From Owenia fusiformis (Eukaryota; Annelida; Polychaeta; Sabellida; Oweniidae), in NCBI GenBank assembly GCA_903813345.2, contig CAIIXF020000011.1, positions 31,984,166 to 32,048,165 on the forward strand: a stretch of 64,000 nt of DNA, written 5' to 3'. The stretch's first letter is position 1; each line of letters starts with the position of its first letter. Below, piece after piece: positions 23,166 to 26,100 of this stretch. Both the position numbers and the translations under genes were made by a program. The notes under the pieces were generated by a model. It had not been told where the DNA came from. It did no database searches and saw only the letters and a list, made by a program, of their open reading frames with translations.

Positions 23166-26100
23166 ATGAAATCTGAAACTGTAAAAAAAGAACCAGGATC
23201 TGTGAAAATGGAGTCAGGAACTGTCAAATTAGAACCGGGAACTGTCAAAATGGAACCAAGAACTGTCAAATTAGAACCGGGAACTGTCAAAATGGAAATG
23301 GGAACTGTCAAAATGGAACTTGGAACTATCAAAACAGAATCAGGACCCATAGAAAAGGAAAATTGTAAAACCCAAATGGTGCCAAATAAGAAAAATACTG
23401 AGCAATGTGTGAATTCAAAATCAGAACCAAAGATTGGTACTCCCCAAGGATCGCTAACCCCTTTTGATGTAACAACAAATAGACGTCCAAAAAGACATTC
23501 AGCAATGGTTTCAGATGCTAAAAGGCGTGCCATCTTTAATTTGGATAATCAAGATGATGGTGAGCCAGTTGTCAAGACAACTAAAAGGTAAGATGATTTT
23601 TCTTAAATATAAAGGAAAAGGAAAAAAGTTTTTTCTGTCACTGCCTCATCTCAGTTCCGATATCAGATTTGGTAAAAGAATCAAAATCTACTACATTTGA
23701 TAATTATCCAATTCTGCAACTACATGTATTACTCATGTGTGATTCAGTATTTACTGTTATTATGCACCTCATTAAAATACTCAAATCTGATTGGTTAAGA
23801 GCTCTAGGGTCTATTGCCATACGTTGCAGCAAGATCTCGTTCTATCCAGTATTGAAGCAACGAGATCTCCAACCATCCCGTATGCCAGAATACATATCCT
23901 CGAAAAAAATACTAGGCTCGGCTTCTGTTTTAGTAGACTCTTTCTTTAAAATAAAGTATTTCTCAAGGGAGGTGCATAATAAAATAAATACTGGATGACC
24001 ATGAGGTGGATATGCCAGAATACCTATCCTCGAAAATTCGCCTCGCCTAGCCTAGCATATCCACCTCATGGTCATCCAGCATTTGTTTAATACGCATCTG
24101 CATATCAAATATGGTTTTTGAAATTTAAAATGAATTAAAAACATCTTTCCTTGTACATGTATATTATTCATATAGTTTATCATCCACCACTGAAATCCAT
24201 GTTGAAATAGCAGCTGATTTACTAAAACATGTACTCAACGAAACAGTAGTAAAGAGCATTAATACTGCAGCATGAATTTAGTGCCATGTCACAATGTATA
24301 CCAGAGTTTCTCAGGATTAGGTCCATGGGCATTTATTTGAAAGAGGGATGTATGAAAAGTATTTTTCCCTCTTTATTAAAGCCCATGGGTGTTCATTTAA
24401 AAGACTTCTTAATAAACATCCTGTGGGCGAAAGCATTCGAGAAAAGGATTGAAATTGAAAACAAAAGTGGCAAACAGCACAGAGAATTTGTGTAAACTTG
24501 ACATGATGTAGCAAAAATATGACGAAAGGTCAAATATTGGTCAACATTCTTGCCTGCATTCATGATAAATTATTACGTGAGTATGAAGGCCATGTGTCAG
24601 ATTGCAATTGATAATATCTCTCGAAATAAATGCCCACTGACTTTGGAAAGCTATTAATAAACGCCCATCCCAATTAGAAGTTTTTTCCCCTCTTAATAAA
24701 GGCCTATGGGCGTTTATTGAAAATTATTTCAAATAAATTCCATGTGCAAAATAAACTCCCATGGGCCTTTTTGCGAGAAACTCCATTAAGAATAAGTTAG
24801 TCCCAATATTGTGATGGTATGACCTTAATTACAAAGTTCTGTAGGGATCAAATGAAGCCCTCCATCCATCTGTCAGCCCATCCGGGAGATAACTTGAATA
24901 CTATTAGTCGGATTTTCTTCATATTTGATGGAAAGATGTATATTGGTGATTATTTTTACGCAAACTTTTTTTTTCAAGATGTCCACCACTCTAAAAATGG
25001 CAGGAATCTTTAGGAAAAAATATAAGTTTTTCATTTTAACCCAAAGTAATAAATATTATTATTGTATATTCCGTGTTTTTCACCCTGACCTTAGGGGCTG
25101 TTGCATCTTCTTTCACTCGGCTCCCGTCAGTTGCCTTCTTATATTTAGCGTAAAAATCCTGACAATGTATATGGGGTGCGCCATGGCGCAACCTAGAATG
25201 TGCCCAATCAGCGTTCAGCATTTTAAATATACCCGCTAGAAAAGAATGGACGCACTATTCAAAACTTTTATTACTGTAAACATTGATTAACTCATGGACA
25301 ATCGTTCTAAATGGATTATAACAGACGTAGGCCTACTGCTATCAAAGATGAGTAAAACAATTCAAATGACTCCTCGTCGAAAAATTTACCGCATTTTGTT
25401 TTAAGCATAGATGGAGTGAATAAAAGTTGAACGCTGATTGGCTTATCGTGTTTTTGTGGCGACTCACTGTCAAAGGTCAATGCGACCAGCTGTGTTTACA
25501 AAGTGGCTTCGGGTGCTTACTAAATAAGCGAAGGGATGAACGCAGTGAAGACCGAGTGTGCGAAGATGGGCTGTTGGGAAAACAGGAATTTGCATTAACT
25601 TTGAGATCTTTCTAAAGTATAGCTTCATTATTATCCCATCGAACGAAGTTCGGAGGGATATAGGGAACGCCTCCATCCGTCCATCCGTACATCCGTACGT
25701 CCGTCCGTACATACATTCGTACGTACGTCCGTCTGTTCGGGCAATAACTCAAATACCGTTGGCCCGATTTTGTTCATATTTTGTACACATATACCCTATG
25801 GGGGTAGAAGTTCTGCTCGTAAGCTCATTTCAAAATGGCAGCCATTTTAGTGCCGAATTTACAGTAATTTAGGTGCAATATGTAAAACTGTAATAGCAAT
25901 ATGTTTTAGATGTAAAAAATTATATAGGACATTAATAAAGCTAGAAATGTAGATATTAAAGAAGCACATGGAAGCCATCTTGAAAAATGGCGGCCTTTAC
26001 TTGTTATTTTACGATTTTTGCTGTAACTCGAAAAGTAGTGGAGCGATTTTGTTCATATTTGGTACGTGAATACTATAAACATTGCACACTGTCTAAAGAC

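What the first reader, a model, noticed from the sequence alone, without database searches (positions are those of the whole stretch)
23166..23345. Strict heptad array of eight SUMO-consensus motifs on an HMG-box protein
Residues 6-58 read V-K-x-E at lysines 7, 14, 21, 28, 35, 42, 49 and 56, with I-K-T-E as the last, each exactly seven residues apart in a T-V-K-x-E-P-G frame. Psi-K-x-E is the established SUMO acceptor consensus. Such a regular tandem array would allow multi-SUMO decoration and could nucleate SUMO-dependent nuclear bodies. Because the 21-bp DNA unit is a minisatellite, copy number may vary between individuals, giving a tunable number of sites.
Basis: partly seen in the sequence, partly recalled or inferred. 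Interest (0 to 1): 0.72.

Follow-up and report, generated by a model that had tools for sequence, protein, structure and literature searches.

The report
Heptad SUMO-motif array on HMG-box protein
An animal gene for a DNA-binding HMG-box protein begins with eight evenly spaced copies of the short signal that usually marks where the small protein SUMO is attached, which suggests, but does not yet prove, a built-in multi-SUMO tail.

Summary
Exon 23166-23587 (+) starts at an ATG and carries eight strict [VI]-K-x-E motifs, K7 to K56, seven residues apart, encoded by eight 21-bp units. It joins in phase through five GT-AG introns to five further inferred exons (33090-38161). The spliced 672-aa protein has an HMG box (Pfam HMG_box_2, 31.7 bits, cut-off 22.4). 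The even spacing follows from tandem duplication. The informative point is retention: in 7 distinct units, 0 of 10 amino-acid-changing codon differences hit K or E (permutation P 0.026; nucleotide simulation P 0.003; but some two slots stay unchanged in 40% of permutations). That is modest support for constraint. SUMOylation, transcription and copy-number variation could not be tested; no orthologue was obtained (no genome held; one viral-contig scan empty). SUMO-interacting motifs are not in excess, so a self-sufficient nuclear-body scaffold is not indicated. Best reading: a flexible N-terminal SUMO-acceptor array on an HMG-box chromatin protein. Main rival: a passively expanded coding minisatellite. 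A new variant of a known kind, of moderate interest.

The parts
23166..23587 (+). first coding exon: ATG, heptad array (aa 1-58), basic linker; donor AAG|GTAAGA, phase 2
   Evidence: donor 8/9 match, reached by 0.6% of GTs in 22-40 kb; non-array part coding-like, 0.3% of 3148 overlapping presumed-noncoding stretches score as high
23178..23345 (+). eight 21-bp units, each encoding [TS]-[VI]-K-x-E-x-[GR]
23346..23366 (+). possible ninth, decayed unit (PIEKENC) without the motif; doubtful
   Evidence: 8-11 of 21 bases shared; no significant local alignment
23144..23165 (+). putative 5' UTR end of this exon after acceptor ..TTTCTAG; in-frame TAG at 23148-23150 makes ATG 23166 the likely start
   Evidence: acceptor unremarkable: 16% of AGs in 22-40 kb score as high
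33090..33580 (+). exon 2: basic cluster (NLS-like, my reading) then acidic stretch
   Evidence: phase 2 in, phase 1 out; no Pfam family at E 0.01
34295..34545 (+). exon 3: low-complexity, acidic start (VIDADSDDD across the junction)
   Evidence: no Pfam family
36293..36476 (+). exon 4: first half of HMG box
36904..37091 (+). exon 5: second half of HMG box and charged stretch
37679..38161 (+). exon 6: predicted long helix then an unassigned region; stop TGA at 38159-38161, or a donor at 38143 could lead to a further exon

Best explanation
The exon encodes a flexible N-terminal tail of an HMG-box DNA-binding protein that presents eight canonical SUMO acceptor motifs. Inferred mechanism: the SUMO E2 enzyme Ubc9 reads the extended V-K-x-E segments directly; several lysines (probably not all at once, since a 7-residue step is about the width of a SUMO core) become SUMOylated; the HMG box holds this multi-SUMO tail on chromatin, where it recruits partners with SUMO-interacting motifs, most likely repressors or repair and remodelling factors. 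Shown here: the motif array, a phase-consistent gene model, the HMG box, no K or E change among the eight units. Inferred: flexibility, nuclear location, SUMOylation, recruitment.
For: Eight strict motifs, none in the other 614 residues. K and E are unchanged in all 8 units while x takes M/L/K/T and the P slot takes P/S/M/L. In 7 distinct units (unit 5 dropped as identical to unit 3) 0 of 10 amino-acid-changing codon differences fall on K or E; psi changes once, V to I, which keeps the motif (slot permutation P 0.026 for K and E; nucleotide simulation P 0.003 for K/E and 0.0008 for psi-K-x-E, or 0.0045 and 0.0012 if only stop-free trials count). VKxE and IKxE are SUMO-unique motifs in human data. 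HMG box passes the Pfam cut-off only after splicing exons 4 and 5 (17.9 bits for exon 4 alone; 31.7 spliced), which also supports the gene model. Another HMG-box protein, HMGXB4, is SUMOylated, the K317R/K320R pair abolishing it (passages of PMC10138897).
Against: No direct evidence of SUMOylation or expression. No orthologue obtained. The chance that any two of seven slots stay unchanged is 0.40, so the constraint signal rests on K and E being named beforehand. The simulations treat units and base changes as independent, which multi-base codon changes contradict. Exon 1 is linked to exon 2 only by phase (1 in 3 by chance) and a good donor and acceptor, across a 9.5-kb intron that holds exons on the other strand. 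In the array itself the codon score is higher in another plus frame (0.112 against 0.039), as a repeat can give. The single-sequence model puts low-confidence strands in part of the array instead of plain disorder.
Confidence: 0.55

Rival explanations
1. A passively expanded coding minisatellite: one chance or single SUMO motif was copied by slippage inside a disordered N-terminus; the number and spacing of sites have no function, and at most one or two lysines are used.
For: The period follows from duplication; this AT-rich window is rich in tandem repeats (54 TRF rows, some overlapping); units 3 and 5 are identical, pointing to a later duplication or conversion inside the array; P for some two unchanged slots is 0.40.
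Against: Units are otherwise diverged, yet no K or E change is seen in units 1-8; the 10 amino-acid changes in 7 distinct units fall elsewhere.
Confidence: 0.27
2. A structural repeat: each G-T-V-K-x is a beta strand and each E-P (or its replacement) a tight turn, giving an amphipathic sheet for dimerisation.
For: The single-sequence AlphaFold2 model shows four five-residue strands with two-residue gaps at residues 18-43, units 3-6.
Against: Low confidence (pLDDT 62-65 for residues 21-40, 47 for 41-50; pTM 0.18); no strands in units 1, 2, 7 and 8; only 4 of 8 units have P; no significant PDB relative (best E 0.23).
Confidence: 0.08
3. A psi-K-x-E-P type SUMO/acetyl switch or charge-patterned tail in which acetylation or another modification of the lysines is the main output.
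For: Four of eight units read VKxEP, the motif described for HIC1 as an acetylation-SUMOylation switch (title in the reference list of PMC3395311).
Against: The P slot is the most changed one (8 nucleotide differences in 7 distinct units), so the switch form is not conserved among units.
Confidence: 0.07

Closest known systems
HMGXB4 (HMG2L1)
   Same: HMG-box chromatin protein that is SUMOylated (PMC10138897, passages)
   Different: SUMOylation there is abolished by K317R/K320R, no regular array is mentioned in the passages seen; Pfam finds no DUF4171 here (that HMGXB4 carries it is recalled)
GCNA/ACRC family
   Same: rapidly evolving acidic disordered region, mouse and human members with repeats, plus an HMG box in typical members (PMC5098910, passages)
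   Different: typical GCNA has a metalloprotease, a C2C2 zinc finger and a two-helix HMG box; Pfam finds no protease or zinc finger in the 672-aa model and the box here spans the canonical profile; SUMO-interacting motifs are not above chance here
PML and polySUMO-polySIM scaffolds
   Same: several SUMO sites on one chain as a basis for multivalent assembly (PMC8430037, passages)
   Different: PML has three major irregularly spaced sites plus a SIM; here eight regular motifs and no SIM enrichment
HMGB / NHP6 HMG boxes
   Same: HMG box aligns with yeast Nhp6A (E 8.9e-9) and HMGB1 (E 2.4e-8)
   Different: outside the box no significant relative: Pfam for the whole model, PDB for exon 1 (best E 0.23) and exon 6 (best E 0.023, a helical stretch of viral envelope glycoproteins); exons 2 and 3 were not searched in the PDB

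Membership tests
HMG-box proteins | HMG box above curated cut-off | tested here: met
   HMG_box_2 31.7 bits (cut-off 22.4), aa 403-472; HMG_box 26.9 (25.4), aa 409-472; on the inferred spliced protein
SUMO substrates | psi-K-x-E consensus | tested here: met
   eight strict motifs
SUMO substrates | motif in accessible, flexible sequence | tested here: inconclusive
   single-sequence model of low confidence, strands in units 3-6
SUMO substrates | covalent SUMO on the lysines | not testable with these tools
   needs proteomics or in vitro assay
SUMO-dependent body scaffold (PML-like) | SUMO-interacting motif in the same chain | tested here: inconclusive
   ELM-type pattern 1 match (aa 637, exon 6), shuffles mean 1.33; VIDADSDDD at aa 302 is SIM-like only
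GCNA | zinc metalloprotease domain | tested here: not met
   no such family in the 672-aa model; the one HExxH in the window's six frames is at 54715 (+), next to a stop and 16 kb downstream
GCNA | C2C2 zinc finger | tested here: not met
   none in the model by Pfam; the one CxxC-x10-30-CxxC match in six frames is at 53786-53887 (+), 15 kb downstream, not examined further
GCNA | two-helix HMG box | tested here: not met
   profile positions 1-71 of 72 matched
HMGXB4 | DUF4171 domain (recalled) | tested here: not met
   absent from Pfam result at E up to 1
VNTR polymorphism | copy number differs between individuals | not testable with these tools
   one sequence only; no genome held

The most novel reading that the evidence does not exclude
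A natural, minisatellite-encoded poly-SUMO tail whose valency is set by repeat copy number and which, held on DNA by an HMG box, nucleates SUMO-dependent chromatin bodies.
Probability: 0.1. Interest if true: 0.75.

Novelty: new variant of a known kind. Interest (0 to 1): 0.42.

Why it matters
Multi-SUMO valency is often studied with engineered tandem fusions (my knowledge; polySUMO-polySIM model systems appear in the listing). A natural protein with a regular acceptor array on a DNA-binding domain would let one ask how SUMO number and spacing control chromatin recruitment, and whether slippage mutation can tune it.

Tried and rejected
Chance motif count: rejected by shuffles. Antisense ORF over the same region (23087-23548, minus): rejected, since the plus strand has in-phase splice sites and, outside the array, the expected plus frame scores highest (0.085; other plus frames 0.034 and -0.173; minus frames -0.16 to -0.23). 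The scoring model was trained on exons 2-6 of this same gene model plus the Glyco_transf_49 and fibrinogen frames, and the control stretches overlap and are only presumed noncoding. GCNA membership: rejected. SUMO-interacting motif inside the protein: no enrichment. Extension of the array into the 5' UTR: an 18-bp stretch at 23151-23168 aligns to the unit (score 16, reached by 3.3% of 300 shuffles), weak; 23346-23420, the possible ninth unit included, aligns no better than shuffles (65% as high). First simulation used a position-majority consensus with an x codon that no unit holds and inflated change at x; replaced by the codon-majority version. C-terminal exon: no Pfam family, PDB best E 0.023, low-confidence model with a long helix (mean pLDDT 49), so no fold search was made. 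Relatives: one viral-contig scan with the C-terminal exon found nothing; genome contigs was not scanned, being prokaryotic. Papers: searches aimed at tandem SUMO motifs listed no paper that I recognised as describing a regular array; (any of six phrases) returned 0 papers, (at least two of six VKxEP-type words) returned 0. These searches cover only the open PMC library, the lists shown were capped, and I judged listings, not full papers. For the six papers cited I saw passages only or, for HIC1, a title in a reference list.

Full report
Observation. The window is AT-rich (GC 0.29-0.37 in 2-kb steps), no whole genome is held for it, and it holds frames with Fibrinogen_C, PAN and Glyco_transf_49 domains, so I take it as animal DNA (inference). 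At 23166 an ATG opens a frame whose first 58 residues contain eight strict [VI]KxE motifs, lysines 7 to 56, step 7. An in-frame stop lies just upstream (23148-23150), so this is likely the first coding exon. Tandem Repeats Finder reports 8.0 copies of a 21-bp unit at 77% matches.

Gene model. From the sequence I placed six coding exons, 23166-23587, 33090-33580, 34295-34545, 36293-36476, 36904-37091 and 37679-38161; all five introns are GT-AG and all phases fit. I chose the exons by eye from open frames, so the phase fit is not a blind test. The donor of exon 1 matches 8 of 9 consensus positions, as do 0.6% of GTs in 22-40 kb; the acceptor of exon 2 is reached by 3% of AGs; several other sites are unremarkable. 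The non-array part of exon 1 scores as coding: 0.3% of 3148 overlapping presumed-noncoding stretches reach its score, and no 146-codon open frame occurs at 30544 overlapping presumed-noncoding positions. Splicing exons 4 and 5 lifts the HMG box from 17.9 bits (exon 4 alone, below cut-off) to 31.7 (above cut-off); in the PDB it aligns with Nhp6A and HMGB1. Residues 403-472 of 672 are the box. Exons 1-2 carry basic clusters that look like nuclear localisation signals (my reading), and exon 2 ends in a long acidic stretch. Exon 6 gives a long helix in a low-confidence model and an unassigned remainder. Its end is uncertain. The weak link is exon 1 to exon 2: a 9.5-kb intron that holds PAN and fibrinogen-like exons on the minus strand.

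Is the motif maintained? Regular spacing is what tandem duplication gives, so it says nothing by itself. The units are diverged (14 to 19 of 21 positions shared between non-identical units 1-8; units 3 and 5 identical). Taking 7 distinct units (unit 5 dropped as a copy of unit 3), the amino-acid-changing codon differences are x 3, P 4, T 1, G 1, psi 1 (V to I), K 0, E 0; synonymous changes are psi 2, E 1, P 1. Placing the changes at random among slots leaves K and E untouched in 2.6% of trials; a nucleotide simulation keeps K and E in all 7 in 0.3%, and psi-K-x-E in 0.08% (0.45% and 0.12% of stop-free trials). Against this, 40% of permutations leave some two slots untouched, and the changes are not fully independent. 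A possible ninth unit lacks the motif, but it is too diverged to be sure that it is a unit. I read this as modest support for constraint on psi-K-x-E.

Mechanism. [IVL]KxE is the most frequent SUMO consensus (PMC3395311, passages); VKxE and IKxE are SUMO-unique motifs in human data, each about 9-fold enriched, with the caution that the motif alone does not define a substrate (PMC13213312, passages). A flexible tail with eight such motifs on a DNA-binding protein most simply acts as a multi-SUMO acceptor that recruits SUMO-binding partners to chromatin. Seven extended residues span about 24 angstrom, close to the size of SUMO (recalled), so full occupancy is doubtful. Multivalent SUMO and SIM chains can form droplets (PMC8430037, passages), but this protein shows no excess of SIMs (1 match, 1.33 expected), so it would be a partner of SIM proteins more than a self-sufficient scaffold.

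Comparison. HMGXB4 shows that an HMG-box protein can be regulated by SUMO. GCNA shares acidic disorder and an HMG box but its protease, zinc finger and two-helix box are not found in this model. The searches of the open literature that I made gave no regular natural SUMO-motif array that I recognised; this is a limited look. Rivals are passive expansion of a coding minisatellite, a beta-strand repeat (low-confidence strands in units 3-6) and a SUMO/acetyl switch (4 of 8 units only).

Verdict. Observation confirmed; interpretation plausible but untested; orthologue conservation, polymorphism and SUMOylation remain open.

Noticed in passing
27065-27640 and 31399-31773 (minus): Fibrinogen_C exon and PAN-domain exon, perhaps one gene, lying inside the 9.5-kb first intron of the HMG-box gene on the opposite strand.
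   Followed up: partly
45099-46832 (minus): 577-codon open frame with Glyco_transf_49 domain, possibly an intronless gene.
   Followed up: no
55991-57921: Large tandem array, period 69/139 bp, with long open frames on both strands that are likely mechanical.
   Followed up: no
21646-22077 (minus): 143-codon open frame that resembles the end of a LINE-type reverse transcriptase (recalled resemblance; no Pfam hit at E 0.01).
   Followed up: no
48767-49183 and 49531-50079: Two 116-119-bp minisatellite arrays with related units in opposite orientation (CCCCAGTCCCCAGT against ACTGGGGACTGGGG), a possible inverted repeat.
   Followed up: no
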